From JBBIPZ01 sp037442505 [NCBI: Deltaproteobacteria bacterium] (GTDB lineage Bacteria > CALINM01), in assembly GCA_037442505.1 (NCBI GenBank), contig JBBIPZ010000007.1:24084-88083 (forward strand): a DNA stretch of 64,000 bases, written 5' to 3'. Shown here piece by piece: positions 1,331 to 58,780 of the stretch. How positions within the stretch are numbered: the stretch's first letter is position 1; each line of letters starts with the position of its first letter. Under the pieces are notes generated by a model that worked only from the letters and a program-made list of their open reading frames with translations, searched no databases and was not told where the DNA came from. A program made the position numbers and the translations under genes.

Positions 1331-1342
1331 TGGGGGCAAATT

Positions 1343-4349: not shown

Positions 4350-4360
4350 AAGAGGTTGTT

Positions 4361-7645: not shown

Positions 7646-7656
7646 AGGTGATTTTT

Positions 7657-8256: not shown

Positions 8257-8261
8257 AGCAC

Positions 8262-36207: not shown

Positions 36208-37574
36208 GCTCTGTTCAACCAATAATTACGGACATTATCGAAAAGGACGAGTTAATGGAGCTTACATCTGATTTTTCTAAAAAGTTTGGTTTTTGTGCCT
36301 TTATTCTTGATTCCAAAGGAAAAATGATTGTCGAAAAACAGTTTATACCAGAGTACTGCGAACGTATTTTGAGTGTTAAGGAAAATGCTACTAAGTGTTA
36401 TAAAGATACCATTTCAAAGATAATGTTAAACAAAGTGCTTTATGATGAATGTTGGGCTGGCCACCGTAAAATTATTGTTCCTATTAAGTTCATGAACAAT
36501 GTTATAGCTTACTGGATTACCTGTGGTATAGCATCAGATGTAAATGAGAAGTTTGTGCAAGCCTTAGCAAACATGATTGACAGCTTTATAAACAAGTTTT
36601 TAAAATCTTACGAAAAGTGGTTTAATGAAAGAGAGTTTGCTACAAAGATTTTAAATAACCTTATTTCTCAGCAAGATTATGATCAGGTACTCGAAAAAAT
36701 TGTATCTTCTGCTACAAAGATACTAAAAACGGATAGGACAACACTTTTTATATACGATGGGGGAAAGTTGGTAAGTAGAATTGCAGAAGGGCTCGAGCAG
36801 GAGATTGCATTAAATTTAGGGGAAGGAATAGCAGGAACCTGTGCGTTAAATAGAGAAATAATTGCTATTGATGAAGTTAAACCTGAAATTGGCATAAAAT
36901 CGATTATAAAAGAGTATGAAGTTAAAAATCTAATTTGTGCACCAATAATATTCAAAAAAAAGTTGTTGGGTGTAATAGAGTCTTTTAATAAAGGAACTTC
37001 TTTCACGATGAAAGATAGAAAACATATATCATATTTGGCAGATGCAGCTGCAATTGCACTTAATAATGCTCAAACATTTGTTGCATTGCAAAGAATGTCA
37101 ATATTGGACCCACTTACCCAACTTTACAACAGAAACTATTTTATTAGATGTCTCGAAAAGGAAACTACGAGACTGAACAGGTACTCTGGAGAGTTATCCC
37201 TTATGTTTATTGATCTTGATGACTTTAAAAAGTTTAATGACTTGTATGGTCATACTGTAGGAGATATTGTTCTTAAAGAGTTTTCAAACCTTATAAAAAA
37301 CAACCTAAGAGACGCTGATATTGCTGCAAGGTTTGGTGGAGAAGAGTTTGTTGTAATGTTACCAAATACTGATAGAGAGGGAGCTTATAAAACAGCAGAA
37401 AGATTACAACAATCAATTAGAAATACTGAAATTGCGGGACATAAAGTTAGTGCGAGCATTGGTATCGCCTGTTATCGGTTAGGGCTTACTGCTAAAATGC
37501 TAATTGATAGGGCTGACAAAGCTATGTATCATGTTAAGAGAACACAAAAGGGTACTATAAGCTTCTGGGATTAG
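36204..37574 (+). CDS. Diguanylate cyclase with PocR-like and GAF sensor domains
   Basis: 456 aa, soluble. Residues about 10-130 contain a cysteine-rich PocR-like domain (FGFCAFILDSKGK, CERILS, TKCYKDT, YDECWAGHRKIIVPI). A GAF domain follows (about 150-295, LKTDRTTLFIYDGGKLVSR). The GGDEF domain (about 300-456) has an intact active site RFGGEEF, and the inhibitory I-site RDAD five residues before GGEEF, so it should make c-di-GMP with product feedback. It is coupled by ATGA overlap to the copper ATPase. The Cys-rich sensor could report metal or redox state; this is inference. Its 3' end overlaps holA on the other strand. Confidence 0.88.
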   Translation: MSSVQPIITDIIEKDELMELTSDFSKKFGFCAFILDSKGKMIVEKQFIPEYCERILSVKENATKCYKDTISKIMLNKVLYDECWAGHRKIIVPIKFMNNVIAYWITCGIASDVNEKFVQALANMIDSFINKFLKSYEKWFNEREFATKILNNLISQQDYDQVLEKIVSSATKILKTDRTTLFIYDGGKLVSRIAEGLEQEIALNLGEGIAGTCALNREIIAIDEVKPEIGIKSIIKEYEVKNLICAPIIFKKKLLGVIESFNKGTSFTMKDRKHISYLADAAAIALNNAQTFVALQRMSILDPLTQLYNRNYFIRCLEKETTRLNRYSGELSLMFIDLDDFKKFNDLYGHTVGDIVLKEFSNLIKNNLRDADIAARFGGEEFVVMLPNTDREGAYKTAERLQQSIRNTEIAGHKVSASIGIACYRLGLTAKMLIDRADKAMYHVKRTQKGTISFWD

Positions 37575-40195: not shown

Positions 40196-40558
40196 ATGTT
40201 AACGCTAAATTCTACCATAAAGGAAATTTTAGTTAGAGAGAACTCAGTAGAAGCTGCAATAATCCTTGATAAAGATGGTATTGTTGTTGCAGAAGAGTCT
40301 AAATCTGGAGATAAAAAAGCTCAAGAGCTTGCTATAGAGTATGCCTCTGTTATGAAACAGATACTTAAGGTAACAGACTACTTAAACATAGGGGCATTGG
40401 AAGAGATCCTTGTATATACTGAAAAAAGTATTATCGTAATAAGATTAATAACGAGAGAGTACTACCTGATTTTAATAACCAACACTGATGGTAATATTGG
40501 TAAAGCAAAATATCTGGCAAAATTGACAGGTGAAAGGTTAGAAAAGGAGTTTAAGTGA
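40196..40558 (+). CDS. Roadblock/LC7-domain protein
   Basis: 120 aa, a single Roadblock/LC7 domain: helix 1 INSTIKE-like start, EAAIILDKDGIVVAEES on strands 1-2, long central helix, EEILVYTEKSIIVIRLI and YYLILITNTDGNIGKAKYL. MglB-type members regulate small Ras-like GTPases in polarity and motility; others have unknown partners. No mglA is adjacent. It heads the operon with aroQ, whose GTG overlaps its stop by 4 bp. Function inferred only from fold. Confidence 0.8.
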   Translation: MLTLNSTIKEILVRENSVEAAIILDKDGIVVAEESKSGDKKAQELAIEYASVMKQILKVTDYLNIGALEEILVYTEKSIIVIRLITREYYLILITNTDGNIGKAKYLAKLTGERLEKEFK

Positions 40559-40995
40559 AGATACTCGTGATAAATGGACCAAACTTGAATATGTTAGGTA
40601 AACGTGAGAAAGAGTTTTATGGAGATATAAATCTTGATACGATAAACTCAAATCTTACTAAAATTGCCGAATCCTTATCTGTTAGTGTAGATTTTTTTCA
40701 GAGTAATAGCGAAGGTTCTATAATTGATAGGATACATCAAGCTACAGATGTTGATGGGATGGTAATTAATTTAGGTGCATATACTCATACAAGCATCGCA
40801 ATCAGGGATGCATTATTGTTATCTAAAAAGCCTTTTGTTGAAGTGCACCTTTCAAATATCTATAGTAGAGAAATATTCAGACAAAAATCTTTAATTAGCG
40901 ATATTGCTATAGGGGTTATAGCAGGCTTTAAAGAAGAAAGTTATTATCTTGCACTTAACGCACTTGTTAAGTATTTAAAATCTAATAAATTTTAA
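40555..40995 (+). CDS. aroQ: Type II 3-dehydroquinate dehydratase
   Basis: 146 aa, usual length. Third step of the shikimate pathway. Motifs: INGPNLNMLGKREKEFYG with the catalytic Tyr, FFQSNSEGSIIDRIH, INLGAYTHTSIAIRDAL and VEVHLSNIYSREIFR with the catalytic His. Starts at GTG 40555, overlapping the previous stop. The next gene starts one base after its stop codon. Confidence 0.95.
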   Translation: MKILVINGPNLNMLGKREKEFYGDINLDTINSNLTKIAESLSVSVDFFQSNSEGSIIDRIHQATDVDGMVINLGAYTHTSIAIRDALLLSKKPFVEVHLSNIYSREIFRQKSLISDIAIGVIAGFKEESYYLALNALVKYLKSNKF

Positions 40996-40996
40996 A

Positions 40997-42037
40997 ATGG
41001 ACTTTGAGAAAAGAATTTATAACGTTCAGAATGATATTTTGAGCAAAAAAAATAATGGTTTGCTTATTTTAGACGTAGAAAATATCTTTTATTTAACTGG
41101 CTTCAGAGGGTCTTTTGCGGCGTTAGTTATAGTAAGGGATAAGGCTTATTTGCTTGTTGATGGTAGGTATTACGAAAAGGCAAAAATGGTTAGTAAGCAT
41201 TGTAGAGTCGTATTATTTGAAAATTTATTCTTAGAAATAAATAAAATTTTGACTTCTGAGAAAATTAATGATTTATATTTTGATGAGGAGGACATTAGAG
41301 TAGCGTTTCTTTCTCGAATAAAAAGGGAATTGAAAGAAGGCGTTAATGTAATCCCGACAAAAGATTGTTATATTAGAAAGCTTCGTATGGTAAAGGATGA
41401 TTGTGAGCTTGAAATTATCAGAAAGGCTGTTAAAAAATCTAAAAAGATAATTGATAAATTTATAAAAAATTATTTAAAAACAGGAATTTCTGAGAAAGCA
41501 TTGGCAGCTCAGCTTGAGTATATGATGAAAACAGAAGCAGATGGTATAAGTTTTGATACTATCGTTGCAAGTGGCCAAAATTCGTCTTTGCCACATGCCA
41601 CACCTACGGAAAGAAAACTTTCATCACGAGATGTAGTGTTGATCGATTATGGGTTGAAGTGGAAAGGTTACTGTACAGATCATACAAGAACTGTATTTTT
41701 AGGTGCGAACAGTTTAGAAAAATATTATAATATAGTACAAAAAGCAGTTGAAATAGGTCTGAGTTTTATTAAACCAGATAATCCAATTAAACTTGTAGAT
41801 GAGAGTATCAGGAGTTTTTTTGAAAAACAGGGTTTGCTTAAACATTTTTTACATTCTTCGGGACATGGAGTGGGAATTAATGTACACGAACCCCCTACTC
41901 TAAGTTATAAGACAGAAGGGGTTTTTAAAGAGGGAATGGTGTTAACCATTGAACCGGGGCTTTACTTTGAGAAGATAGGCGGAATAAGATTAGAAGAAAT
42001 GTTTGTGGTTACAAAAACTGGCTATGAAATATTATAA
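40997..42037 (+). CDS. M24-family aminopeptidase (Xaa-Pro type)
   Basis: 346 aa. N-terminal creatinase-like domain (ENIFYLTGFRGSFAALVI) followed by the pita-bread metallopeptidase domain. The five dinuclear metal ligands are present: Asp in LIDYGLKWKGYCTDHTR (two), His in SSGHGVGINVHEPP, Glu in TIEPGLYF and Glu in IRLEEMFVV. Such enzymes remove N-terminal residues before proline. The aroQ-pepP-efp order is common in bacteria. Only one base separates it from aroQ. Confidence 0.92.
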   Translation: MDFEKRIYNVQNDILSKKNNGLLILDVENIFYLTGFRGSFAALVIVRDKAYLLVDGRYYEKAKMVSKHCRVVLFENLFLEINKILTSEKINDLYFDEEDIRVAFLSRIKRELKEGVNVIPTKDCYIRKLRMVKDDCELEIIRKAVKKSKKIIDKFIKNYLKTGISEKALAAQLEYMMKTEADGISFDTIVASGQNSSLPHATPTERKLSSRDVVLIDYGLKWKGYCTDHTRTVFLGANSLEKYYNIVQKAVEIGLSFIKPDNPIKLVDESIRSFFEKQGLLKHFLHSSGHGVGINVHEPPTLSYKTEGVFKEGMVLTIEPGLYFEKIGGIRLEEMFVVTKTGYEIL

Positions 42038-42051
42038 AAAATGGAGGTTAT

Positions 42052-42612
42052 ATGTATTCAACAGCAGATTTTAGAAAAGGCTTAAAGATAGTGTTTAATA
42101 ATGAGCCTTACGAAATTATTGATTTTCAACATGTTAAGATGGGGAGGGGTGGCGCCATCGTAAGAACAAAAATGAAAAGCTTGAAAACGGGATACGTTAT
42201 TGAAAATACTTTTAGGTCGGGTGAAAAGGTTGAAAAACCCGAACTTGAGGAACGTCCCATGCAGTATTTATATAAAACTGACGGAGGGCTTGTTTTTATG
42301 GACAACGAATCATTTGAACAGATTACAATTTCGGAAGATATGATTGGTGATGGTATAAATTATCTTGTAGAGAATATGAATGTAGATGTTAATTTTTATC
42401 ATGGAAAACCAATAGGTGTTGAAATACCAATGTTTGTTGAATTGAAAGTTGTGGAAACTGTTCCGGGAATTAAAGGGGATACTGCAAGTGGTGGCTCTAA
42501 GCCTGCAAAACTTGAGACAGGAGCAGTTATTCAGGTACCACTTTTCGTTAATGAAGGTGAAGTAATAAAAATCGACACAAGGACAGGCACATATCTTGAA
42601 AGAGTAAGATAA
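42052..42612 (+). CDS. efp: Elongation factor P with Arg at the modification site
   Basis: 186 aa, three-domain EF-P that rescues ribosomes stalled at proline runs. Domain I begins YSTADFRKGLKIVFNNEPYE; the last domain ends with the family signature FVNEGEVIKIDTRTGTYLERV. The tip loop that enters the peptidyl-transferase centre reads HVKMGRGGAIV: Arg32 stands where E. coli has the beta-lysylated Lys34, and Met replaces the usual Pro of the PGKG loop. Arg at this position is otherwise known from EF-P rhamnosylated by EarP. AAAAATGGAGG precedes the ATG. Confidence 0.95.
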   Translation: MYSTADFRKGLKIVFNNEPYEIIDFQHVKMGRGGAIVRTKMKSLKTGYVIENTFRSGEKVEKPELEERPMQYLYKTDGGLVFMDNESFEQITISEDMIGDGINYLVENMNVDVNFYHGKPIGVEIPMFVELKVVETVPGIKGDTASGGSKPAKLETGAVIQVPLFVNEGEVIKIDTRTGTYLERVR

Positions 42613-42624
42613 AAAGGGGGGGTA

Positions 42625-42999
42625 ATGGCTTTTGCCGATATTAAATATTCAAATAACCATATGTGGGTTAAATTCAAAAGGGATAGAGCCGTAATTGGTG
42701 TTACAGAAAATCTGTTAGAAGGTGTAAACGAAATTGTTCTTGTGTCACTTCCAAAAGCTGGAGAAGAGATTACTAAAGACGATCTATTTGGCACCCTTGA
42801 AACGGGTTCAGATATCATAGATTTAGTTGCTCCTTTAAGTGGTGAGGTTGTAAGGGTAAACAACCTTGTCCAAGAAGATCCAGAAGTGTTGCTTGAAGAT
42901 CCTTATGGTGATGGCTGGATACTGGAGATTGAATATTCTGACGAGGAAGAGGCCGAAAATCTTTTAGATCTTGAAGATTACGAGGCGATGACAGAGTGA
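42625..42999 (+). CDS. Glycine cleavage H-protein homologue lacking the lipoyl lysine
   Basis: 124 aa, the length of GcvH. The H-protein fold is unmistakable: KYSNNHMWVKFKRDRAVIGV, LVSLPKAGEEITKDDLFGTL, LVAPLSGEVVRVNN and EDPYGDGWILEIE. However, the lipoylation motif ESVK is ETGS here (Glu59-Ser62), so the lysine that carries the lipoyl arm is Ser62. It cannot work as a normal H protein. It lies 12 nt after efp, where many bacteria have the biotin carrier gene accB, and 3 nt before a large TPR gene. No gcvT or gcvP is in the window. Likely a structural or regulatory H-like protein; function unknown. Confidence 0.88.
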   Translation: MAFADIKYSNNHMWVKFKRDRAVIGVTENLLEGVNEIVLVSLPKAGEEITKDDLFGTLETGSDIIDLVAPLSGEVVRVNNLVQEDPEVLLEDPYGDGWILEIEYSDEEEAENLLDLEDYEAMTE

Positions 43000-43002
43000 A
43001 AA

Positions 43003-45399
43003 ATGGCGTTTAACAAAGCAAAAGTTCTTGAAGACATACAAAAGTATGTACAGAGAGGCCAGATCGACAAGGCTATTGAAGAGTATGAACGAGTACTTAA
43101 AATAGATCCTCGTGATTATAAACTTCGTCAGAAGTTGGGCGACCTTTATCTTAGAAAGGGCAAGAACGCAGAAGCAGTAAATCAATACATCCAGGTTGCA
43201 GAATATTATATAAAAGATGGATTTTATCTTAAGGCGATTGCTTTATACAGTCAAATCTTAAGAACAGATCCGTCCAAACTTTCTATATATGAAAAACTTG
43301 CTGAGTTGTATAAGAAGCAGGGCTTGATAGGCGAAGCTGTAGCAAGATTAAGAATTCTTGCTGAGATATACGAAAAACAACGAAACCTTTCTGATGCAAT
43401 GCAATCATGGGAAAAGATTATCAATCTGGACCCCGATAATGTCATTTACAGGGGCAAGTTAGTCGAATTTTATTTAAAGCAAGGGCTGGCTACAAGAGCT
43501 GAAGAAAAACTGAGGCAGGCTGTTGACTATTTTAAGAGCAAAGGTAGGTATGACGAAGTAGAAAAATTGATGTCACATTTTCCCGGTGTGCTTGAGGAAG
43601 ACAAGACTGTTGTTCTAAACTTAGCACGGACTCTTTTTTCGGAAGGTAAATATATTGAAGCGTTAGAAAAATTAGACCAGTATATAAAGGCTAATATTAA
43701 GGATTCTGAAGCATATTTTTTAAAAGCTTCCTGTTATTTGAATATTAATCAGTTTAATTTAGCAAAACATTCTTTTGAGATGTGTTTAAAGATCGCCCCT
43801 TTATCCACAGATGCAAGGAAGGGGCTTCTTAAAATTTATGCTAAGGAAAAAAATTGGTCTCAACTGATTTTGCTTATAGAAGAACTATTTAAGATATATT
43901 CTAATAACAAGGCGTATGATGATTTCAAGGCTATTATTGACAATTATTATCCTTATCTGCCTGAGGAGAAGCGTCTTTTGTCAATTTATATAGAACTTTT
44001 TAGGATTACAGGAGACCTAAAGCCACTAAAAGAAAAATTAAAAAAGTTAGCCAATGTTTACCTTAACGAAGGCAACAAAGATGAGGCAACTAAACTATAC
44101 AAGGAAGTTTTGTCTTTGGACCCTAAGGATGATGATGCTGTTTCATTTTTTAAACTATCGGAACCAGAAATCGTTAAAGATGAAAAAATAGAACCAGCAA
44201 AAAAAGAAGTTACTAAAAAAAGTGAATTAATTATTGTAGAGGATTTAACAACTATTTCTACAGAAGAATCTTCCTTAGATAAAGAATTATATGAAGTATC
44301 AAACTTATTAAAGTTTGGGTTACTATCAAAGGCTAAAGAAAAGTTGGAGGAACTTTCTACAAGATTTCCTGACACGCTTTCCGTAAAAGAGATGTGGCTT
44401 GAATATTTCGACATTACAAAAGACAAAGAAGCTTACATAATTGTTTTGAAAGAAATTATAAATATTTGCAAGAAATATGAAAATGCAGAAAAGCTGGTTT
44501 ATTATGAACGTCTTTTAAATGAGGAAATCATCGAAAAAGCACATTCTAAAGCGGCTGTTAATAAAACGGCTACAATTGAAGAAGCTGATATCATTGAAGA
44601 TATAGAAGAGGCAGAAATTGCCACGCCAAATATTGACGATTTGCTCATTGAAGCTGATTTTTATTATAAAAATGAGATGCTTAAAGAGGCTCAGCAGTTT
44701 TATGAGAAAGTCTTAGAAGTTGATCCTGAGAACGTTGTTGCAAAACAAAGATTGCAAAGTATAAATAAAGTTAATGTTACAACTATAGAAACGAAGCCTG
44801 TCATTGTTACCGAAAAGAAACCGAAAGAAGCAGCTGAAACAGATTTTTACGACCTTTCTGGCGAGATAATGAAAGAATTGGAAAAAGAATCTTTGTTTGA
44901 GGCTACGTTTAAATCTGAAACAGAAAGAATTTCTTTTGAAGAACTGTTGAAAGAGTTTAAAAATAAGATTTCTCAGGAGATCGAAGAAGGGGATGTAGAG
45001 ACACATTATAATTTAGGTATAGCATACAAAGAGATGGGATTGTACGATGATGCGATACAGGAGTTTATTTTAACCTCGCGCTTTCCTCAAAAAACCTATG
45101 ATTCTTATATAATGGTTGCAACCTGTTTATCAGAGAAGAAGGATTATGAAAAGGCGGCTCAATTTTTTAAAAGAGCACTTTCGCTACCAGATGTAGAGAA
45201 GGAAAAAAAGGCTGGTATATATCTGGAGTTGGGTAATATTTATGAAAATCTGGAGATGTTTGAAAAGGCGATCATCTCTTTTAATAAGGCTGCTTCAATT
45301 GATAATACACTTAGAATTGCAAAAGAGAAGATTAATAATATTTTGTTAGAAAAACCTGAGCTTGCCAACCTGCTTAGTAAAGATGACTTAGATATATAG
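43003..45399 (+). CDS. Large tetratricopeptide-repeat protein
   Basis: 798 aa, soluble, no signal peptide. TPR units fill about residues 5-400 (DKAIEEYERVLKIDPRDYKL, KAIALYSQILRTDPS, DAMQSWEKIINLDPDN, EALEKLDQYIKANIKDSEAY). An acidic low-complexity linker covers about 390-430 and 525-545. Further TPR units follow to the end, including AQQFYEKVLEVDPENVVA and KAAQFFKRALSLPD. It probably acts as a scaffold. It starts 3 nt after the H-like gene and is co-transcribed with it, so the two may function together; that is inference. Confidence 0.85.
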   Translation: MAFNKAKVLEDIQKYVQRGQIDKAIEEYERVLKIDPRDYKLRQKLGDLYLRKGKNAEAVNQYIQVAEYYIKDGFYLKAIALYSQILRTDPSKLSIYEKLAELYKKQGLIGEAVARLRILAEIYEKQRNLSDAMQSWEKIINLDPDNVIYRGKLVEFYLKQGLATRAEEKLRQAVDYFKSKGRYDEVEKLMSHFPGVLEEDKTVVLNLARTLFSEGKYIEALEKLDQYIKANIKDSEAYFLKASCYLNINQFNLAKHSFEMCLKIAPLSTDARKGLLKIYAKEKNWSQLILLIEELFKIYSNNKAYDDFKAIIDNYYPYLPEEKRLLSIYIELFRITGDLKPLKEKLKKLANVYLNEGNKDEATKLYKEVLSLDPKDDDAVSFFKLSEPEIVKDEKIEPAKKEVTKKSELIIVEDLTTISTEESSLDKELYEVSNLLKFGLLSKAKEKLEELSTRFPDTLSVKEMWLEYFDITKDKEAYIIVLKEIINICKKYENAEKLVYYERLLNEEIIEKAHSKAAVNKTATIEEADIIEDIEEAEIATPNIDDLLIEADFYYKNEMLKEAQQFYEKVLEVDPENVVAKQRLQSINKVNVTTIETKPVIVTEKKPKEAAETDFYDLSGEIMKELEKESLFEATFKSETERISFEELLKEFKNKISQEIEEGDVETHYNLGIAYKEMGLYDDAIQEFILTSRFPQKTYDSYIMVATCLSEKKDYEKAAQFFKRALSLPDVEKEKKAGIYLELGNIYENLEMFEKAIISFNKAASIDNTLRIAKEKINNILLEKPELANLLSKDDLDI

Positions 45400-45410
45400 T
45401 GTGTTTTCTG

Positions 45411-46841
45411 ATGACAACTTCATTTACATCTAAGATTAATCAATTTATTCAAACTTCTTGCCCAGTTTTAAAAAACCTGTTATCGATGGAAAACACCTAT
45501 CTGGTAGGTGGTGTTGTAAGAGATTTACTGTTTAAGGAAAGTGGCGTTAAAGATATTGATATTGTTACAGGAGATCCAATCAAATTTATAAAGAAAAATT
45601 CAAAATTGATTAAAACTGTTGTCTTACTTGATGAGGAGTTTGAGGTTTATAGAATATTTTTAAGAAATGAACAAGATTTTTATCTGGATACCACCAGGCT
45701 TCAAGGTAACAATATCATAGAAGATTTATCGAGACGTGATTTTTCAATTAACGCTATAGCGGTTAGTTTTTGTAATGATATTGTAGAAATAATAGACCCC
45801 TTTGGTGGCATAGACGATGTAAAAAATGGTTTAATTCGCAAGTTAAATAAGGCTAACCTATTAGCCGATCCTTTAAGGATGCTCAGGGCTTTCAGGTTTA
45901 AAGCTGAACTTGGTTTTGAGATTGAAGAAGCAACCTTGCGGGATATTAAAGAACTTTTTTCTAATATAAATAAAGTTGCAAAAGAACGCATTAAAGGGGA
46001 AATTTTTAAAATACTTAGCTCACCAATCGCAACAAAGACGTTTTACGAGTTATATCAAAACAATGGGTTGAAATTTATTTTCCCATTTATATCTGAATAT
46101 GAAGATTATTTCTCAGGGAAAAGACATAAATATGACCTATTACACCATAGTTTTAAGGTGATGGAAACTATAGAAAATTTTATTAACGAAAACAGTTTTC
46201 CAATAAGTTTCGACAATGATATTCTCGTTTTAGAGACTGAAAACGAAGCTACATTGGCAGGTTTATTAAAACTCTCCGCCATTTTCCATGATGTTGGTAA
46301 GCTTTTTACAAAAAACGAAATTGACGGAAAGATAACGTATTATGAACATGAAAAAGTAGGCGCAGAGTTTATTAAAGATTTTTTACAAAAAGAAAAGTTT
46401 GCTTCAGATACAATTAATTTTATTGCTAAAATGATTAGATATCATATGTATCCATTTCATATCTTGTTTTTTGGCGAAAAAGAGGCTTCGCTATCTCCCC
46501 GTAGTTACCTTAAGATTAAAGGTATCTTAGAAAACAAGGCAGAGCTGTTATTTAATTTTGCAATAGCAGATACGATTGCAACCACCGATGGTCTCTATAC
46601 AAAAAAGATGATTGATTTGATAAAAAAACTGTATAATCTATATTTAGATTATGAGAAAAAAGATAAAAAAACTAACATAATGAATGGAATTGAGGTGATG
46701 CAGTTATTGGGGATTAGCCAAGGTCCTATCGTTGGAAAATTGCTAAGGAGCTTAAAGGAGATGTTTTTGGCAGGAGAAATTAATACTAAAGAGGAAGCGA
46801 AAGAATTTTTGAAAAAATATTATGAAGAAAACGTTGGATAA
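45411..46841 (+). CDS. cca: CCA tRNA nucleotidyltransferase / poly(A) polymerase family with HD domain
   Basis: 476 aa from the ATG at 45411 (an in-frame GTG at 45399 would add 4 residues; neither has a clear ribosome-binding site). Class II nucleotidyltransferase head: YLVGGVVRDLL, catalytic DID in VKDIDIVTG, RRDFSINAIAV, and the neck LADPLRMLRAFRFKAELGFE. An HD domain follows (HHSFKVMETIENF, IFHDVGKLF, YYEHEKVGAEF). It adds CCA (or part of it) to tRNA 3' ends. Both tRNA genes in this window lack an encoded CCA. Its end overlaps pgpH by 20 bp. Confidence 0.88.
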   Translation: MTTSFTSKINQFIQTSCPVLKNLLSMENTYLVGGVVRDLLFKESGVKDIDIVTGDPIKFIKKNSKLIKTVVLLDEEFEVYRIFLRNEQDFYLDTTRLQGNNIIEDLSRRDFSINAIAVSFCNDIVEIIDPFGGIDDVKNGLIRKLNKANLLADPLRMLRAFRFKAELGFEIEEATLRDIKELFSNINKVAKERIKGEIFKILSSPIATKTFYELYQNNGLKFIFPFISEYEDYFSGKRHKYDLLHHSFKVMETIENFINENSFPISFDNDILVLETENEATLAGLLKLSAIFHDVGKLFTKNEIDGKITYYEHEKVGAEFIKDFLQKEKFASDTINFIAKMIRYHMYPFHILFFGEKEASLSPRSYLKIKGILENKAELLFNFAIADTIATTDGLYTKKMIDLIKKLYNLYLDYEKKDKKTNIMNGIEVMQLLGISQGPIVGKLLRSLKEMFLAGEINTKEEAKEFLKKYYEENVG

Positions 46842-51673: not shown

Positions 51674-53428
51674 ATGGAAAAAATTGGCGAGTTACTGCTT
51701 AAAGAAAAAATAATAACTCCAGAACAGTTGAGGAAAGCCATTGAAGAACAAAAAATAATGGGTGGTAGGCTTGGCTCAACGATGGTTAATCTGGGTTTTA
51801 TCAAAGAACAGGAATTAATCAACTTCCTGAGTAAGCAGTATGGTGTTCCTGCTGTTAATTTACATGAATTTGAAATAGACCCTAAGGTTTCAAGACTTGT
51901 TCCGTTCGAAATCTGTGAAAAGTACAACGCAATTCCTATAAACAGGGCAGGATCAACATTAATCGTTGCTATGGCCGATCCTTCAAATATTTTTGCTATT
52001 GATGACATCAAATTTTTGACGGGTTATAACGTCGAAGTAGTAGTGGCCTCAGAGGCTGCTATAAAGGATGCAATAGAGCGGGAATTTAAAAGAAAGGTTT
52101 CAAAAGATGAACAGGAGCAGGAGACTGTTCCAGCAATCGAAGAAGCATCTATCGAGGAGCCCTCATTAGAAGAGGCAGTTTCTCTACTTGAAGAGGTTGA
52201 AGATTTAGAAGTTGTTCAGGAAGAGGAAGAGGTAAATGTCAACGAACTTCAAAGAGCCACTGAAGATGCTCCGGTTGTAAAGCTTGTAAACGCAATTTTG
52301 CATGAAGCTATTAAACGGCGTGCAAGCGATATCCATGTGGAACCATACGAAAAAGAGTTTCGTGTTCGTTTCAGAATAGACGGAGTTCTTTATGAAATAA
52401 TGAAACCGCCAATTAAATTAAAAAATGCGATAGTTTCACGTTTGAAAATACTTTCCAATCTTGATATTGCGGAAAGACGTCTCCCACAGGATGGTAGAAT
52501 TAAACTCAAGATTTCTGGCGGAGAGATGGATTTCAGGGTAAACACTCTGCCTACACTTTTCGGTGAAAAGGTCTGTTTAAGATTACTGGACAAATCCAAT
52601 CTTCAGCTTGATATGACAAAATTGGGTTTTGACGAAGAACAGCTTAAACTTTTTAAGGAGGCTATACACAGACCTTATGGGATGGTGCTTGTAACAGGTC
52701 CTACAGGTTCTGGAAAAACGACAACTCTTTATTCAGCATTATCAGAACTTAACAAAGTAACAGAAAATATATCTACTGCGGAAGACCCTGTCGAATATAA
52801 TTTGAAAGGTATTAATCAGGTGCAGATGAATGAAGCCATAGGACTAAATTTTGCAAATGTTTTGAGGGCTTTTCTAAGACAGGATCCGGATATCATAATG
52901 GTTGGAGAGATAAGAGATTTTGAAACTGCGGAAATAGCAATTAAAGCAGCTCTGACCGGGCACTTGGTCTTATCAACACTTCATACTAATGATGCGCCGA
53001 GTACAATCGCAAGATTGCTCAACATGGGTGTTGAGCCTTTTTTAGTAGCATCCGCAACTAACCTTGTACTTGCTCAGAGGCTTGCAAGGAAAATCTGTCT
53101 CAACTGTAAAGAGCCTGTAAGTATTCCAGTTAAATCACTTATAGATTTGGGGCTTACCGAAGAAGAAGCAAAAAATATTACTTGTTATAGAGGAAAGGGT
53201 TGTGAAACCTGTGGTAATACTGGTTATAAAGGCAGAATAGCCCTCTATGAAGTGATGATGCTTTATGATGAACTGAAAGAGCTTATTTTGGCAGGTGCTC
53301 CAGCCAGTGAATTGAAAAGGGCTGCAATAAGTTTGGGATTTAGGACTCTGCGTATGAGCGGTTTAGATAAATTAAAAGCAGGAATTACCACTGTAGAAGA
53401 AGTTGTTAGGTGTTCTGTAAAAGATTAA
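51674..53428 (+). CDS. pilB: Type IV pilus extension ATPase
   Basis: 584 aa. N-terminal MshEN/T2SSE-N domain (LLKEKIITPEQLRKAIEEQK, residues 6-25), an acidic linker (about 148-190), and the secretion ATPase core: Walker A GPTGSGKTTTL, Asp box AEDPVEY, Walker B DPDIIMVGEIRD and His box HLVLSTLHTND. The C-terminal CxxC pairs (CLNC, CETC) bind zinc in PilB. It powers pilus assembly at the inner membrane. First gene of pilB-pilT-pilC-pilS-pilR. Confidence 0.95.
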   Translation: MEKIGELLLKEKIITPEQLRKAIEEQKIMGGRLGSTMVNLGFIKEQELINFLSKQYGVPAVNLHEFEIDPKVSRLVPFEICEKYNAIPINRAGSTLIVAMADPSNIFAIDDIKFLTGYNVEVVVASEAAIKDAIEREFKRKVSKDEQEQETVPAIEEASIEEPSLEEAVSLLEEVEDLEVVQEEEEVNVNELQRATEDAPVVKLVNAILHEAIKRRASDIHVEPYEKEFRVRFRIDGVLYEIMKPPIKLKNAIVSRLKILSNLDIAERRLPQDGRIKLKISGGEMDFRVNTLPTLFGEKVCLRLLDKSNLQLDMTKLGFDEEQLKLFKEAIHRPYGMVLVTGPTGSGKTTTLYSALSELNKVTENISTAEDPVEYNLKGINQVQMNEAIGLNFANVLRAFLRQDPDIIMVGEIRDFETAEIAIKAALTGHLVLSTLHTNDAPSTIARLLNMGVEPFLVASATNLVLAQRLARKICLNCKEPVSIPVKSLIDLGLTEEEAKNITCYRGKGCETCGNTGYKGRIALYEVMMLYDELKELILAGAPASELKRAAISLGFRTLRMSGLDKLKAGITTVEEVVRCSVKD

Positions 53429-53440
53429 GAAGGATTGTAT

Positions 53441-54571
53441 ATGGCAGATGAATTAAGGTCTCAAAATGTTTTAAACATGCACCAGCTATTAAGTATCATG
53501 GTCAATAGTAGTGGCTCAGACCTTCACGTAACTATTGGCTCAAAGCCACAGATAAGAGTTGATGGTAATTTAACTCCACTTGAAGAGTTTCCAGTCTTGA
53601 CATCTACAGATACCAAGATGCTTTGTTACAGCATTTTGACAGAGTCTCAAAAACAGAAGTTTGAGGAACAGAATGAATTAGATTTTTCTTTTGGTATAAA
53701 AGGTCTATCAAGGTTTAGGGGCAATCTGTTTGTCCAAAGAGGGTCTGTAGCTGGCGTATTTAGGACTATCCCTTATAGAATCATGTCATTTGAGGAATTG
53801 GGCTTGCCTCCAGTGGTGGCAGAACTGGCGGATAAAGCAAAAGGACTTATACTCGTTACAGGTGCAACAGGTTCAGGTAAATCCACAACGTTAGCTACTA
53901 TCATAGATAAAATCAATAGAGAAAGGCATGAACATATAATTACAGTGGAAGATCCTATAGAATTTTTGCACCCACACAAAAACTGCCTTGTTAATCAAAG
54001 AGAGATTGGCTCAGACACAAAAGATTTTCAATGTGCGTTAAAACATATTTTGAGACAGGATCCAGATGTTGTACTGATCGGAGAATTAAGGGACAAGGAA
54101 ACTATTGAAGCTGCTCTTACCATAGCAGAAACGGGACATCTATGTTTGGCGACTCTTCATACTAACAGTGCTGTTCAAACTATAAACAGAATCATAGATG
54201 TGTTTCCTCCTCATCAACAGCCGCAGATTCGTGCGCAGCTATCTTTTGTGTTAGAAGGCATTTTGTGTCAGCAACTCCTACCAAAGATAGGTGGAAAGGG
54301 TAGAGTTATGGCAATGGAAATTTTAGTGCCTAATCCTGCTATAAGGAATCTCATTAGAGAAGACAAGCTTCATCAGGTTTATTCTCAGATGCAGATGGGG
54401 CAGACAAAATCTGGTATGCAAACAATGAACCAATCACTTGCTGCTCTTGTTCAAAGGAGATTGGTAAAATTAGAAGATGCTTATATATACAGTCCAGACC
54501 CTGATGAACTTAAACAGTTGATTGCAGGCGGATTATCTTTCAAACCCGGTCAACCGCCAATCAGGAGATAA
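53441..54571 (+). CDS. pilT: Type IV pilus retraction ATPase
   Basis: 376 aa from the ATG at 53441, 7 nt after AAGGA; the in-frame TTG at 53435 is too close to that site. Walker A GATGSGKSTT, Asp box VEDPIEFLH, Walker B DPDVVLIGELRD, His box HLCLATLHTN, and the PilT-specific AIRNLIRE helix needed for retraction. It depolymerises pili and so drives twitching. 12 nt after pilB and 6 nt before pilC. Confidence 0.96.
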   Translation: MADELRSQNVLNMHQLLSIMVNSSGSDLHVTIGSKPQIRVDGNLTPLEEFPVLTSTDTKMLCYSILTESQKQKFEEQNELDFSFGIKGLSRFRGNLFVQRGSVAGVFRTIPYRIMSFEELGLPPVVAELADKAKGLILVTGATGSGKSTTLATIIDKINRERHEHIITVEDPIEFLHPHKNCLVNQREIGSDTKDFQCALKHILRQDPDVVLIGELRDKETIEAALTIAETGHLCLATLHTNSAVQTINRIIDVFPPHQQPQIRAQLSFVLEGILCQQLLPKIGGKGRVMAMEILVPNPAIRNLIREDKLHQVYSQMQMGQTKSGMQTMNQSLAALVQRRLVKLEDAYIYSPDPDELKQLIAGGLSFKPGQPPIRR

Positions 54572-54577
54572 TATAAC

Positions 54578-55771
54578 ATGCCTACATATAGTTGGGAAGG
54601 TAAGAATCGTAGTGGCAGGGTGGTAAAAGGTAAAACGCAGGCTAATAGTATCGATGCGGTGTATGCTCAGCTTAATTCTCAGCTAATTACACCAATAAAA
54701 GTTGTTGAAACAAAAGAAAAAAAATCAAAAGGTAGTGTCCCTACTAAGGACAAAGTTGTATTCACGAGGCAGTTTTCAACGATGATTGATGCTGGATTGC
54801 CTCTTGTTCAGAGTCTGGAAATATTAGCCTCTCAGCAACCTAATAAATTCTTTAAAGAGGTACTGTATCAGATTAAAAGCGATGTAGAACAGGGAAGCAC
54901 GCTTTCGGAAGCACTTAAAAAACATCCTAAGGTTTTTGATGACTTATACGTTAGTCTTGTTGCGGCTGGCGAAATGGGGGGTATGCTTGACCAGATTTTA
55001 AACAGGTTGGCTTCTTATATGGAAAAATCAGAGAAGCTTGTTAAAAGAGTTAAAGGAGCGATGACATACCCAGCGGTTGTTATAGGAATCGCTATTGTTG
55101 TTGTTGCAGTAATTTTGATTTTTGTTATACCTGTTTTCCAGAAGATGTTTGCTGATTTTGGTGGGGAGCTTCCTGCGCCTACACAATTTGTTATAAATCT
55201 AAGTAATGCGCTAAAAAAGTATGGAATATTTATTGCAATGGGCATCTTTGCTTTAGTTACAATGATTAAAAAATACTACGGAACACCGGGTGGGCGTTTA
55301 AAAATAGACGCTTTACTTCTTAAGGCACCAGTAATTTCTGAACTCATTAGAAAAAGCGCAGTAGCTCGTTTTACACGCACGTTAGGTACAATGATTTCAA
55401 GTGGAGTCCAAATTTTAGATGGACTTGAAATTGTTTCAAAAACTGCGGGAAACAAGGTTATAGAAAATGCTATTATGGAGGCACGCGTAAGCATCTCACA
55501 AGGTAAAACAGTTGCCGAGCCTATTGGACAGAGCGGGGTTTTTCCACCTATGGTAGTTCAGATGATAGCGGTTGGTGAAGCTACAGGTGCAATGGATAAT
55601 ATGTTAAACAAAATTGCGGATTTCTATGAAGAAGAAGTGGATGCCGCAGTTGACGCACTTACAGCAATGATTGAGCCCCTACTTATGGTGTTTTTAGGCA
55701 CAGCCTTAGGTGGTTTGATTATCTCAATGTATCTTCCTATCTTCAAGCTTGCTGGAGCTGCCGGCGGCTAA
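54578..55771 (+). CDS. pilC: Type IV pilus inner-membrane platform protein
   Basis: 397 aa with two GspF domains (about 65-190 and 265-390): FTRQFSTMIDAGLPLVQSLE in the first and FTRTLGTMISSGVQILDGLE in the second. Three to four membrane helices. It couples the PilB and PilT motors to pilin. The preceding and following genes fit the standard pilBTCSR order. Confidence 0.95.
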   Translation: MPTYSWEGKNRSGRVVKGKTQANSIDAVYAQLNSQLITPIKVVETKEKKSKGSVPTKDKVVFTRQFSTMIDAGLPLVQSLEILASQQPNKFFKEVLYQIKSDVEQGSTLSEALKKHPKVFDDLYVSLVAAGEMGGMLDQILNRLASYMEKSEKLVKRVKGAMTYPAVVIGIAIVVVAVILIFVIPVFQKMFADFGGELPAPTQFVINLSNALKKYGIFIAMGIFALVTMIKKYYGTPGGRLKIDALLLKAPVISELIRKSAVARFTRTLGTMISSGVQILDGLEIVSKTAGNKVIENAIMEARVSISQGKTVAEPIGQSGVFPPMVVQMIAVGEATGAMDNMLNKIADFYEEEVDAAVDALTAMIEPLLMVFLGTALGGLIISMYLPIFKLAGAAGG

Positions 55772-55778
55772 GTCTATC

Positions 55779-57392
55779 ATGGAAGATAAAGCACACCTTC
55801 TACTTAATCGTTTAAAATGGGTTTCATTTTATAGAGTTGTTATAGCTTTCATTTCACTCATTTTGCTTATATACTGGAAATCTAAGCTCGATATTATTCC
55901 AGAAAGTTTATACTTTATCGCAACGCTTATATTCATTTTCTCTGTATCAATAGTTTACGGCTTTGTAATTAGTAGAATCAAAACTCCATTTATTTTAATT
56001 ATAGTCCAGCTTGTTATTGATATATTGGTTATTTCGTTTGTGGTAATTTCTACTGGTGGGGTTGAAAGTCCCTTTATCTTTTTTTATGTGTTTGTGATAT
56101 TAGAAGGAGGCATCTTTTTCTCAAAGAAAGGCGCATATTTAGCCTCTTTTGTTAATATTTTAGTAGTTGGCACAATATTTCTTTTGCAATATTATTCGGT
56201 TTATCCAATCAATAAGCTTTTAATTAGCAGAATTATTTATTCAGCTTATGACCTGTTTTATAGTTTCTCGATTTTAACGCTTGAGTTCCTTGTGTTGGGA
56301 CTATTGGTTGGTTTTTTAACTTCTGAAACAAAGAAAATCCTTGAAAATCTGGAAGAGAGCGAAGCCCGTGTTTATGACCTTGAATATCTAAAAACTGCTA
56401 TTCTTACTAGTATTAATGATGGCTTGATTGTTTTTGGTGAAGATAGCATCTCTTACATAAACGAACCTGCTAAAAATGTTTTTAGTAAGATTGGTAATAC
56501 AAACAATGTCGATACTTTTAGCAGAATTTTTAAAGATGAAGTGCAAATAATAAAAAAAGAACAGAAAACTTTAAGATTTGAAAGGGCGATTCCAGTAGAT
56601 ACAGGCGAAGTTTTGTGGCTTAATTGTGCGCTTTCCCCATTAATGAGTCATGAAAACAAAATGATAGGTGTTCTTCTTTCTTTTCAAGATCTAACTCAGG
56701 TTAAAATGATGGAAGAATGCTTAAGAATTAACGATAAGTTTGCATTTATTGGCAAACTTTCCACCGTTATAGCACATGAGATAAGAAATCCTCTGGCTTC
56801 ATTAAAAGGAAGTATTGAGTTTTTAAGAGAAAATATGGTTATAGACGATGAAAATAGAAAGGTCTTTGAAATAGTTACGAGAGAGATTGATAGACTAAAT
56901 AAATTTATTACTGATTTTCTTTCTTATTCTCGCAACATCGAACTCAATATATCTAAAATTTATTTAAAGAATTTACTTCAAGAAATATGGTATGAGCTTA
57001 TGTTTTCTTTTGAAAATAAGGAAATGTTTATTTTTAATTACGAGGGAGATGATGCTGTTGTTATAAATGGAGATCCAAATCAAATCAGGCAGGTTTTTTT
57101 AAATCTTTTTATCAATTCTGTTCAGGTAATCCAATCAAAGAAGGGTAGTGGTTCAATAAATGTTGTTGCAAAAGAGACTTCAGATAGTGTTACAATAACT
57201 TTTGAAGATGATGGTGGTGGGATAGAAGAACAGTATATAAATAAGGTATTTGATCCATTTTTTACGACAAAAAATGGTGGAACTGGCTTAGGGCTTGCCA
57301 TTGTTTATAAAATAATGCAGGAACATGGCGGGAAGATAATTGTTACCAATGGTGAAAAAGGGGCAAAATTTATTTTAAGGTTTTTTAAATGA
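55779..57392 (+). CDS. pilS: PilS-type sensor histidine kinase
   Basis: 537 aa from the ATG at 55779; an in-frame TTG at 55749 inside pilC would add 10 residues. Six membrane helices (about 15-180), a PAS-like domain (about 205-320), HisKA with phospho-acceptor His in IAHEIRNPLASLKGSIEFL, and HATPase motifs (GDPNQIRQVFLNLFINSVQ, GGTGLGLAIV). PilS responds to pilin level in the membrane and phosphorylates PilR. Its stop overlaps pilR by 4 bp. Confidence 0.9.
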   Translation: MEDKAHLLLNRLKWVSFYRVVIAFISLILLIYWKSKLDIIPESLYFIATLIFIFSVSIVYGFVISRIKTPFILIIVQLVIDILVISFVVISTGGVESPFIFFYVFVILEGGIFFSKKGAYLASFVNILVVGTIFLLQYYSVYPINKLLISRIIYSAYDLFYSFSILTLEFLVLGLLVGFLTSETKKILENLEESEARVYDLEYLKTAILTSINDGLIVFGEDSISYINEPAKNVFSKIGNTNNVDTFSRIFKDEVQIIKKEQKTLRFERAIPVDTGEVLWLNCALSPLMSHENKMIGVLLSFQDLTQVKMMEECLRINDKFAFIGKLSTVIAHEIRNPLASLKGSIEFLRENMVIDDENRKVFEIVTREIDRLNKFITDFLSYSRNIELNISKIYLKNLLQEIWYELMFSFENKEMFIFNYEGDDAVVINGDPNQIRQVFLNLFINSVQVIQSKKGSGSINVVAKETSDSVTITFEDDGGGIEEQYINKVFDPFFTTKNGGTGLGLAIVYKIMQEHGGKIIVTNGEKGAKFILRFFK

Positions 57393-58780
57393 GTAAAAAC
57401 GTTGTTATCGTCGATGATGATTTAAGCTTACGTGAATTATTGGAGATTGTATTAAAGAAAGAAGGTTACACTGTGTTTTCTTTTGCTGATGGTACTGATG
57501 CGCTATCAAACATTTCTAATAATATCAAAGATATAGATGTTATTTTGAGTGATATCATCATGCCCAGAATGGACGGAATAACATTTTTAGAACATGTAAA
57601 AAAACTTGATGCAAACATTCCAGTGATAATGATTACTGCTAACACAAGATTGGATTATGCAGTTCAAGCTTTGAAACAAGGTGCTTACGACTATATAACC
57701 AAGCCATTCAAGAATGATGAGCTTAAGATTATCGTCAAAAATGCCATCGAAAAAAGAAATTTATTTCGCGAAAACGTCCAATTAAAAGAACGGTTAAAAG
57801 GTGAAGAGAGAAATATTATTTTTGTAAGCAAAATAATGGAAGATATCTACCTTAAAGCACTGGCGGTTGCTGCAACAGATGCCTCTGTTTTAATTACAGG
57901 AGAAAGTGGTTCTGGAAAGGAGCTTTTTGCTCGATTAATTCACGAAAAAAGTAATCGAAAACAAGGTCCATTTTTTGCTGTAAACTGTGCTGCAATTCCC
58001 GAAACACTTGTGGAAAGTGAATTTTTTGGATACGAAAAAGGTTCTTTTACAGGTGCAAATTACTCAAAACCTGGTTTTTTTGAATTAGCTAACAAGGGAA
58101 CACTTTTTCTTGATGAAATAGGCGAATTACCTCTCTCGTTGCAGGTGAAATTATTAAGAGCCATTGAAGAAAGAGAGGTACTTCGCTTGGGTAGTAAAGA
58201 GCCAATTCCAGTTGACATAAGAATTATTGCAGCTACAAATAAAAATTTAAGCGAAGAAGTACAAAATGGCAGGTTTAGAGAAGATCTGTTTTATCGGCTA
58301 AATGTTGTAACTCTCCAAATTCCACCTTTAAGAGAAAGGAAGGAAGATATTTTTACACTTGCAATGCATTTTTTAAAGAAATGTTGCTTAAAAAATTCAA
58401 AAGATATTAAAGGTTTTACTAAAGATGCAGTAAAACTCTTAGAAAGCTATCACTGGCAAGGTAATGTTAGGGAACTCCAGAATGTTATTGAGCGAGCATG
58501 TGTGTTTGAAACGGGAGATATTATTGGATTAGGCAGTCTTCCTGTTGAGCTTATCAACGTATCAGATGTCAATAGTGAGAAAGTTGTTAATAAATCAAAT
58601 TTTGAAAATTTTGAGTTCAAAAATTTTAACTTAGACGATTATCTTAAAAAACAGGAACAAATGCTAATAGAAGCCGCCATCAGAAAGGCAGGTGGGAACA
58701 AAAAGGTTGCTGCCGAGCTTTTGGGTATATCTTTGTGGGCGCTTTATCATCGTTTAGATAAGAAAGCTTCTACTGATTAA
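57389..58780 (+). CDS. pilR: PilR-type sigma-54-dependent response regulator
   Basis: 463 aa. Receiver domain with phospho-acceptor Asp in VILSDIIMPRMDG, AAA+ domain with Walker A GESGSGKE, sigma-54 contact loop GSFTGA, Walker B LFLDEIGELP, and a Fis-type helix-turn-helix (KKVAAELLGISLWALYHRL). It activates pilA in other bacteria. No pilA lies next to it here, so its target is elsewhere. Its end overlaps nadE on the opposite strand by 4 bp. Confidence 0.92.
   Translation: MSKNVVIVDDDLSLRELLEIVLKKEGYTVFSFADGTDALSNISNNIKDIDVILSDIIMPRMDGITFLEHVKKLDANIPVIMITANTRLDYAVQALKQGAYDYITKPFKNDELKIIVKNAIEKRNLFRENVQLKERLKGEERNIIFVSKIMEDIYLKALAVAATDASVLITGESGSGKELFARLIHEKSNRKQGPFFAVNCAAIPETLVESEFFGYEKGSFTGANYSKPGFFELANKGTLFLDEIGELPLSLQVKLLRAIEEREVLRLGSKEPIPVDIRIIAATNKNLSEEVQNGRFREDLFYRLNVVTLQIPPLRERKEDIFTLAMHFLKKCCLKNSKDIKGFTKDAVKLLESYHWQGNVRELQNVIERACVFETGDIIGLGSLPVELINVSDVNSEKVVNKSNFENFEFKNFNLDDYLKKQEQMLIEAAIRKAGGNKKVAAELLGISLWALYHRLDKKASTD

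What the first reader, a model, noticed from the sequence alone, without database searches (positions are those of the whole stretch)
42625..45399. H-protein homologue with the lipoyl lysine replaced by Ser, paired with a large TPR protein
All the GcvH framework is present, but ESVK is ETGS. It follows efp, where the biotin carrier accB is common, and is fused by a 3-nt gap to a 798-aa TPR scaffold, in an operon headed by a roadblock-domain protein. A carrier fold recruited to a structural or regulatory role, with the TPR protein as partner, would be a new use of the H-protein fold.
Basis: partly seen in the sequence, partly recalled or inferred. Interest (0 to 1): 0.65.

Follow-up and report, generated by a model that had tools for sequence, protein, structure and literature searches.

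The report
De-lipoylated H-protein beside SgmX-like pilus regulator
A metabolic carrier protein that has lost the lysine that bears its cofactor sits, in a small group of bacteria, between genes that resemble the known switch for surface-moving pili, which suggests that it was reused as a regulatory part.

Summary
ORF 42625-42999 is a full GcvH fold (Pfam GCV_H 1e-30; AlphaFold pLDDT 91, TM 0.92 to bovine H-protein) with Ser62 where 75 of 80 fetched relatives have Lys. It is no recent mutation: its two nearest orthologues carry Glu62 in the same gene order, and all three also lack five other near-invariant sites (A30, Q31, L34, G35, N90) while keeping the structural core. Of the three held genomes of the nearest relative's phylum, none has lipoyl synthase or GcvP over cut-off; the two with an H-family gene have only this one. 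The TPR protein is SgmX-like (N- and C-terminal regions colinear with a true SgmX), the roadblock protein's best PDB match is MglC, and pilB-pilT-pilC follow downstream. In G031 the locus reads mglC-efp-accB-accC-sgmX, and Archangium is alike; here the H-like gene holds the accB-accC slot. Best reading: a pseudo-carrier recruited as a protein-interaction part of an MglA/SgmX-type pilus control module. Fold and loss of the lipoyl site are well supported; binding to the TPR protein is inferred. Against it: a probable relative in G017 is not next to a TPR gene.

The parts
42625..42999 (+). H-like protein, 124 aa: GcvH fold without the lipoyl lysine (Ser62, codon TCA at 42808-42810)
   Evidence: Pfam GCV_H 1.1e-30; site compared in 80 loci; AlphaFold2 pLDDT 90.7; Foldseek best match 3klr, TM 0.92
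43003..45399 (+). SgmX-like TPR protein, 798 aa; solenoids at about 5-385, 422-519 and 544-790 separated by low-confidence linkers
   Evidence: NCBIfam SgmX model 235.3 bits, cut-off 1800; residues 3-250 and 550-771 align to a SgmX over cut-off in L096; AlphaFold2 pLDDT 74.8, pTM 0.41, two-row alignment
40196..40558 (+). MglC-like roadblock/LC7 protein, 120 aa, first gene of the run
   Evidence: Pfam Robl_LC7 1.2e-8; best PDB match MglC 7ct3, 5.1e-13
40555..40995 (+). aroQ-like (3-dehydroquinate dehydratase), named by eye
   Evidence: ORF; matches in the G001, G002, G060 and G065 loci; name not tested against a library
40997..42037 (+). pepQ-like (Xaa-Pro peptidase), named by eye
   Evidence: ORF; matches in the G001 and G002 loci
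42052..42612 (+). efp (elongation factor P), named by eye
   Evidence: ORF; 79-80% identical in G001 and G002, 53-64% in five other TPR loci
45399..46841 (+). tRNA nucleotidyltransferase / polyA polymerase family (cca-like)
   Evidence: Pfam PolyA_pol 3.7e-18 and HD 2e-7; also follows the TPR gene in G001, G002 and G003
51674..53428 (+). pilB, type IV-A pilus assembly ATPase
   Evidence: TIGR02538 797.1 bits, cut-off 675.65
53435..54571 (+). pilT, pilus retraction ATPase
   Evidence: TIGR01420 491.6 bits, cut-off 319.1
54578..55771 (+). pilC, pilus inner-membrane platform
   Evidence: NF052606 (type IV pilus PilC) 563.8 bits, under its cut-off of 700
55749..57392 (+). histidine kinase in the pilS position
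   Evidence: kinase models, best 5.3e-70, those shown under cut-off; pilS by position only
57389..58780 (+). sigma-54 response regulator in the pilR position
   Evidence: NtrC/AtoC-type models, best 2.1e-142, those shown under cut-off; pilR by position only

Best explanation
The gene encodes a pseudo-carrier: an H-protein fold that can no longer be lipoylated at the usual site, kept under selection as a small protein-interaction module. It is encoded next to an MglC-like roadblock protein and a SgmX-like TPR effector of the MglA polarity switch. By analogy with FrzS, a pseudo-receiver protein that docks on the middle TPRs of SgmX, it most likely binds the SgmX-like protein through its remodelled face (the former lipoyl hairpin, now acidic, plus residues 30-35 and 90) and tunes recruitment of PilB and so pilus extension. 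Shown by computation: fold, loss of the lysine and of further near-invariant sites, conservation, gene order, families of the partners, no lipoyl synthase or GcvP over cut-off in the phylum's three held genomes. Inferred: co-expression, binding to the TPR protein, the face used, and the effect on pili.
For: Fold intact. Lys absent in both orthologues (E, E), clade support 99/90; a G017 protein with Glu62 joins them at 98/95. Six sites near-invariant in 102 Lys-bearing H rows are lost in all four (A30, Q31, L34, G35, K62, N90), while core sites (W14, G25, P43, G46, P70, G73, N79, P86, D92, P93, G97, W98, Y119) are kept in all four. No lysine is invariant among the four. Codon positions 1 and 2 differ at 26%, position 3 at 65%, against the G001 orthologue; dS saturated, dN 0.35: purifying selection. 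Only H-family protein in G001 and in G002; no lipoyl synthase and no GcvP over cut-off in 3 of 3 genomes. Order roadblock-aroQ-pepQ-efp-H-like-TPR-cca in the window, G001 and G002. TPR protein SgmX-like at both ends; in the Archangium genome the sgmX-locus TPR is its best match (9.4e-46), the next gene 6.6e-14. Roadblock closest to MglC. MglB-MglA pair in G002 and a near-identical pair in G003 (193 of 197 and 158 of 162 positions, stops included). pilB, pilT, pilC downstream. FrzS precedent and SgmX three-region layout: PMC11580455 (passages).
Against: The probable relative in G017 stands alone, not next to its SgmX-like gene, so the pairing is not universal; its own place in the clade is less sure than the support says (long branch; 128 bits to the three-row profile, below a Lys-bearing protein of G030 at 135). 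The run also holds housekeeping genes (aroQ, pepQ, efp, cca), so adjacency is weak evidence of a shared task. In M. xanthus sgmX heads a putative operon of its own with its own 5' UTR (MXAN_5766-63; PMC7668184, passages), so even there neighbouring genes need not be functional partners. The window TPR protein scores far below the SgmX cut-off (235 against 1800), and TPRs match promiscuously. No interaction was modelled: the tool folds single chains. In G001 the PF00025 search gave no frame of MglA size (361, 884 and 335 aa); that may be an assembly gap. Genome completeness is not told, so absence of lipA and gcvP is not proof. The window's own genome could not be searched.
Confidence: 0.4

Rival explanations
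1. The H-like protein is a conserved pseudo-carrier, but its task is unrelated to the TPR or pilus proteins; it merely lies in a crowded run of housekeeping genes.
For: In G017 the probable homologue lies apart from any TPR gene. The run holds aroQ, pepQ, efp, cca. accB and accC sit in the same slot in relatives and are not pilus proteins. In M. xanthus sgmX is described as the head of its own putative operon (PMC7668184, passages).
Against: The pair H-like/TPR is kept in 3 of 3 readable loci of the lineage with gaps of 3, 3 and 6 bases; the flanking MglC-like, SgmX-like and pil genes form a coherent set.
Confidence: 0.35
2. A regulator of biotin- or acyl-carrier metabolism: a dead carrier that competes with or plugs a carboxylase or ligase, as plant BADC proteins (biotin carrier homologues without biotin) do for acetyl-CoA carboxylase. 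BADC is recalled.
For: It sits in the accB-accC slot of four related loci. A biotin carrier with an AMKM motif exists elsewhere in G002 and G003, beside a biotin-carboxylase-like gene.
Against: It belongs to the H-protein family, not to the biotinyl family, and that carboxylases bind H-proteins is not known to me. The neighbours kept in all three loci include no carboxylase or ligase that I recognise.
Confidence: 0.1
3. It still carries a cofactor on another residue, or works as an electron or acyl carrier by a different chemistry.
For: The fold and the hairpin strands are kept, and hydroxyl or acidic residues replace Lys. K7 and K44 are invariant in the three members of the lineage.
Against: K7 and K44 lie outside the hairpin and G017 lacks both. 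No lipoyl synthase over cut-off in 3 of 3 genomes. Other sites tied to the lysine (A30 in 75 of 75 Lys loci; Q31, N90) are lost too. Lipoate ligases were not searched.
Confidence: 0.06
4. A decaying relic of GcvH after loss of glycine cleavage.
For: No GcvP over cut-off in 3 of 3 genomes.
Against: Open frames in three separate genomes, core sites retained, third-position changes in large excess.
Confidence: 0.04

Closest known systems
GcvH, H-protein of the glycine cleavage system (PF01597, TIGR00527)
   Same: Same fold and length, 36-38% identity to E. coli and Thermotoga H structures, structural core residues kept
   Different: No lipoyl lysine, five further near-invariant sites lost, no GcvP or lipoyl synthase over cut-off in the lineage's three held genomes, under the TIGR00527 cut-off
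mglC-efp-accB-accC-sgmX gene order (G031, L096; Archangium lansinium, L114)
   Same: Roadblock gene first, efp, then a carrier-fold gene, then the SgmX-like TPR gene
   Different: The carrier is a dead H-protein, not the biotin carrier; accC is absent; aroQ and pepQ are inserted; cca instead of an AAA ATPase follows the TPR gene; pilB-T-C lie downstream
FrzS, pseudo-receiver protein that binds SgmX in Myxococcus xanthus (PMC11580455, passages)
   Same: A fold that lost its modification site, working as a docking partner of the TPR effector, is the mechanism proposed here
   Different: Unrelated fold; FrzS also has a large coiled coil for polar localization; binding is shown for FrzS and not for the H-like protein
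LbpA, the lipoate-binding H-like proteins of sulfur oxidation (PMC6067878, search listing), and GcvH-L of Streptococcus pyogenes (5a35)
   Same: H-fold proteins used outside glycine cleavage
   Different: Those are carriers with the lysine (recalled), whereas this one has none at the site
TIGR03077 'not_gcvH' and NF045810 'GcvH_rel_desulf' (NCBIfam)
   Same: H-related families set apart from GcvH
   Different: Weak matches only: 51.3 of 144.05 and 44 of 150 bits

Membership tests
GcvH (functional H-protein) | H-protein fold over the whole length | tested here: met
GcvH (functional H-protein) | Lysine at the tip of the lipoyl hairpin | tested here: not met
   Ser62; Glu in orthologues
GcvH (functional H-protein) | Score over the TIGR00527 equivalog cut-off | tested here: not met
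   109.9 against 115.85 bits
GcvH (functional H-protein) | GcvP, GcvT and lipoate supply in the genome | tested here: inconclusive
   No GcvP or LipA over cut-off in 3 relatives of untold completeness; GcvT and lipoate ligases not searched; the window's genome is not held
SgmX (TPR protein 43003-45399) | N-terminal and C-terminal TPR regions colinear with SgmX | tested here: met
   residues 3-250 (34% identity) and 550-771 (28%) against L096 SgmX
SgmX (TPR protein 43003-45399) | Score over the NF052243 cut-off | tested here: not met
   235.3 against 1800 bits; hence called SgmX-like only
SgmX (TPR protein 43003-45399) | Binds MglA-GTP and is needed for pili | not testable with these tools
   bench test needed
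MglC (roadblock protein 40196-40558) | Closer to MglC than to other roadblock proteins of known structure | tested here: met
   7ct3 MglC 5.1e-13, next 0.012
MglC (roadblock protein 40196-40558) | Interaction with MglB | not testable with these tools
   recalled property of MglC, no test here
BADC-like dead carriers | Biotinyl (BCCP) family without the biotinyl lysine | tested here: not met
   The protein is in GCV_H; no Biotin_lipoyl match at E 0.001

The most novel reading that the evidence does not exclude
A glycine-cleavage H-protein was stripped of its cofactor site and turned into a dedicated co-regulator of a SgmX-type effector: after the lineage lost glycine cleavage and lipoate synthesis, the orphan H-protein settled in the slot of accB-accC inside the mglC-sgmX locus, where it now docks on the TPR protein to set how many type IV pili are made. 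This would be the first H-fold pseudo-carrier in bacterial polarity or motility control that I know of.
Probability: 0.32. Interest if true: 0.8.

Novelty: new variant of a known kind. Interest (0 to 1): 0.6.

Why it matters
Pseudoenzymes are well known, but to my knowledge dead cofactor-carrier domains are hardly described in bacteria. Here a carrier survives where no cofactor pathway was found in the held genomes of its kin, beside homologues of the best-studied bacterial polarity module. If the link is real it shows how a core metabolic part can be captured for motility control, gives a testable new partner for SgmX-type proteins, and warns annotators that a GcvH label does not mean glycine cleavage.

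Tried and rejected
Recent point mutation or sequencing error: rejected, the orthologues in G001 and G002 also lack Lys. Lysine shifted to a neighbouring site: disfavoured, no lysine is invariant in four members, though K7 and K44 are in the three of the lineage. A second, canonical GcvH in the lineage: looked for and not found in G001, G002 or G003. TPR protein as an arbitrary scaffold: replaced by SgmX-like after the colinearity test. Wider search for the clade: the three-row profile A1 over 386 relatives of G001 gave G001 and G002 (217 and 216 bits, both members of the profile), then a Lys-bearing protein of G030 (135) and the Glu62 protein of G017 (128). The four-row profile A3 over 386 relatives of G017, largely the same genomes, gave its own members G001 (203) and G017 (191), then G030 (141). 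Neither found it in G003. Residue 62 was read only for the 30 loci that each search laid out, so other Lys-less H-proteins may lie lower in the lists.

Other Lys-less H-proteins (L016, L022, L024, L073; L174 as L178; L192 as L196 and L193 as L195) were looked at and set aside: none has a match to the window TPR protein in the stretch fetched (L196 is near a contig end). On the tree the Lys-less label needs 5 changes, of which well-supported branches force 2; L192 and L193 were fetched after the tree. Rows dropped before the site counts: L184_D, L184b_E, L183_S, L145_K, L144_K, L146_K (very long branches); two of these, L184b_E and L183_S, keep A30 although they lack Lys. Tree caveats: 117 rows on 120 columns, bootstrap not settled, L150 (G017) on a long branch.

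Literature: terms for GcvH without the lysine and 'type IV pili' + GcvH + TPR (no paper) listed no such protein in the open-licence library; I judged by titles and abstract starts; most subscription papers are not held.
Full report
What is there. The window carries a same-strand run from 40196: a roadblock gene, aroQ-like, pepQ-like, efp, the 124-aa H-like gene (42625-42999), a 798-aa TPR gene (43003-45399), a cca-like gene and further genes down to pilB, pilT, pilC, a histidine kinase and a sigma-54 regulator ending at 58780. The H-like protein is a complete H-protein by sequence (Pfam GCV_H 1.1e-30; 14 distinct PDB sequences at E up to 0.001, all named H-protein) and by model (pLDDT 90.7; 22 PDB matches at E up to 0.001, all H-proteins or H-protein chains of complexes). 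The lipoyl-lysine position is Ser62.

Is it more than a point mutation? In the genome scan, the best 80 of 512 relatives were kept; at position 62 they have Lys in 75, Thr in 3, Arg in 1 and Glu in 1. The one with Glu is the nearest relative, L001 (56% identity), in G001. A second orthologue in G002 also has Glu. The phylum of G001 has only three held genomes. A maximum-likelihood tree of 117 H rows joins window, G001 and G002 (99/90) and then a protein of G017 with Glu62 (98/95); the tree has few columns and an unsettled bootstrap, and G017's protein sits on a long branch and scores no better to the lineage's profile than some Lys-bearing proteins, so its kinship rests on the tree and on shared lost sites. 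Comparing these four with 102 Lys-bearing rows (six long-branch rows dropped), 24 alignable sites are at least 95% constant; all four lose A30, Q31, L34, G35, K62 and N90, each loses at most two more, and the rest are kept, whereas Lys-bearing rows lose 0.37 on average and 3 at most (the mean also counts three gap columns at the N-terminus). The hairpin (56-70) has charge -3 to -5 in the four against a mean of -1.2 and a minimum of -2 in the others. That these sites line the lipoyl arm in H-protein structures is recalled, not measured here. A30 goes with the lysine: in the 80 loci, 75 of 75 with Lys62 have Ala30 and 5 of 5 without it do not; of the dropped long-branch rows two break this rule. 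Selection is purifying: dN 0.35 with saturated dS against G001, 26% change at codon positions 1 and 2 and 65% at position 3.

The metabolic background. G001 and G002 each hold one GCV_H protein, the H-like one; G003 none, but its TPR contig (4297 bases) ends inside the TPR gene at residue 50, just before the expected place. Lipoyl synthase reaches no more than 22 bits (cut-off 310) in the three genomes, while the search rings in 12 of 14 control genomes, 10 of them over cut-off; GcvP reaches no more than 21.1 bits (cut-off 26), ringing in 10 of 14 controls. Completeness of the three genomes is not told. Biotinyl domains exist elsewhere: in G002 and G003 a 158-160-aa biotin carrier with AMKM follows a carboxylase-like gene. 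The window's own genome is not held.

Who are the neighbours? The TPR protein matches the NCBIfam SgmX model with 235 bits, far under its cut-off of 1800. G031's TPR protein passes that cut-off (1985 bits), and the window protein aligns to it at both ends: residues 3-250 with 1-248 (34%) and 550-771 with 743-978 (28%), the latter including a stretch before the last repeats. In the named genome of Archangium lansinium the protein at the sgmX-type locus is the best match (9.4e-46; next gene 6.6e-14); that Archangium protein itself scores 1413.6 bits, under the cut-off. The AlphaFold model shows three solenoid blocks (about 5-385, 422-519, 544-790, shallow two-row alignment, pTM 0.41). SgmX is described with three TPR regions: eight N-terminal TPRs for pilus activation, three middle ones binding FrzS, three C-terminal ones binding MglA (PMC11580455, passages). 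The roadblock protein's best PDB match is MglC (5.1e-13; next 0.012); the roadblock gene in G031's sgmX locus is an MglC (3.3e-65); PMC11112851 (passage) gives the second entry of that sequence, 7CY1, as MXAN_5770. Archangium's roadblock protein was not compared with the PDB. G002 carries an MglB-MglA pair, its MglA matching PDB entries named MglA at 8.6e-103 (MglB 91 bits to NF052242, cut-off 200); G003 has a near-identical pair. pilB and pilT pass their curated cut-offs; pilC is under its cut-off.

The locus elsewhere. L096 (G031) and L114 (Archangium): roadblock-efp-accB-accC-TPR-AAA ATPase. L115 (bin47): roadblock-aroQ-efp-accB-accC-TPR-AAA. L099 (G036): roadblock-accB-accC-TPR. L098 and L101: efp-TPR-AAA. 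L100: roadblock-aroQ-TPR at a contig end (accB and accC tested by Pfam in L096 and L099, by similarity to these in L114 and L115). The TPR loci L097, L102, L103, L104 and L116 show no efp or roadblock match in the stretch fetched; L104 has a Lys-bearing H gene 3.9 kb upstream of a 600-aa TPR protein. So roadblock, efp and TPR go together in several lineages, and the H-like gene stands where accB-accC stand in four loci. The window, G001 and G002 share roadblock-aroQ-pepQ-efp-H-like-TPR-cca, with H-like to TPR gaps of 3, 3 and 6 bases, all in the same reading frame. In M. xanthus, however, sgmX is described as the first gene of a putative operon of its own, MXAN_5766-63 (PMC7668184, passages).

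How it most likely works. Shown: a conserved H-fold protein without its cofactor lysine, in a lineage where no lipoate synthesis was found, encoded between MglC-like and SgmX-like genes and upstream of pil genes. Inferred: it binds the SgmX-like protein or the MglC-like protein and adjusts pilus extension. A precedent for the logic is FrzS, whose pseudo-receiver domain, without phosphorylation residues, binds SgmX and stimulates its polar recruitment (PMC11580455, passages). [quoted passage not shown] xanthus SgmX (PMC11025332, passages), so the effector family is known to vary.

What speaks against. The G017 protein is solitary, although G017 has a SgmX-like gene elsewhere (L103); so either the partner acts in trans there, or the pairing is a feature of one lineage, or the G017 protein is a separate loss. 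Adjacency in a run with housekeeping genes is weak evidence. Nothing physical was tested.

Novelty. Searches of the open-licence library for GcvH proteins without the lysine and for GcvH with pili listed no such protein by title or abstract start; recalled knowledge agrees, but most subscription papers are not held. H-fold proteins outside glycine cleavage are known (LbpA, GcvH-L), and dead carriers are known in plants (BADC, recalled). I therefore rate it a new variant of a known kind, with a bolder reading left open.

Noticed in passing
L195 6179-6562 (G315:C37): Another Lys-less H-protein (Glu62) lies between a dihydrolipoamide-dehydrogenase-like gene and ferredoxin-NADP reductase / glutamate-synthase-like genes (named by eye); it keeps Q31, L34 and G35, so the loss looks separate.
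   Followed up: partly
L016, L022, L024 (8001-8357) and L140-L142: Three MAGs carry H-proteins with Thr at the lipoyl site and Gly at A30, single genes beside an alanine-dehydrogenase-like gene (by eye); G063 and G064 also hold further H-family proteins with Lys at the aligned site, G062 has only this one.
   Followed up: partly
L073 8001-8339 (bin47, G065); L174 (G040); L192 (G193): H-proteins with Arg at the lipoyl site; in G065 it is the only GCV_H match.
   Followed up: partly
L001-L080, the 80 loci: Ala30 and Lys62 go together without exception in the 80 loci (75 of 75 with, 5 of 5 without), a possible marker for dead H-proteins.
   Followed up: partly
L096, L097, L098, L101, L102, L103, L114, L115: Directly after the SgmX-like gene in eight loci stands an AAA-type ATPase, in seven of them with a similar start by eye (L098 diverges); Pfam AAA_22 passed its cut-off in two of three tested (L097, L114; L098 under it). 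The window lineage has cca there instead. A possible unexplored SgmX partner.
   Followed up: no
window 42997-43005; L001 5462-5470; L094 12332-12343: The H-like and TPR genes are in the same frame in all three loci, one or two codons between stop and start, so stop readthrough would give one chain.
   Followed up: no
window 51674-53428: PilB carries an N-terminal MshE-type c-di-GMP-binding motif (NF053729, 68.7 bits, cut-off 38), and a diguanylate cyclase lies at 36204-37574.
   Followed up: no
window 353-6348 and 6437-10130: By eye only: a bioB-bioF-bioA-bioD-like biotin cluster, then a CO-dehydrogenase-like cluster with a ferredoxin-like and a flavoprotein gene.
   Followed up: no
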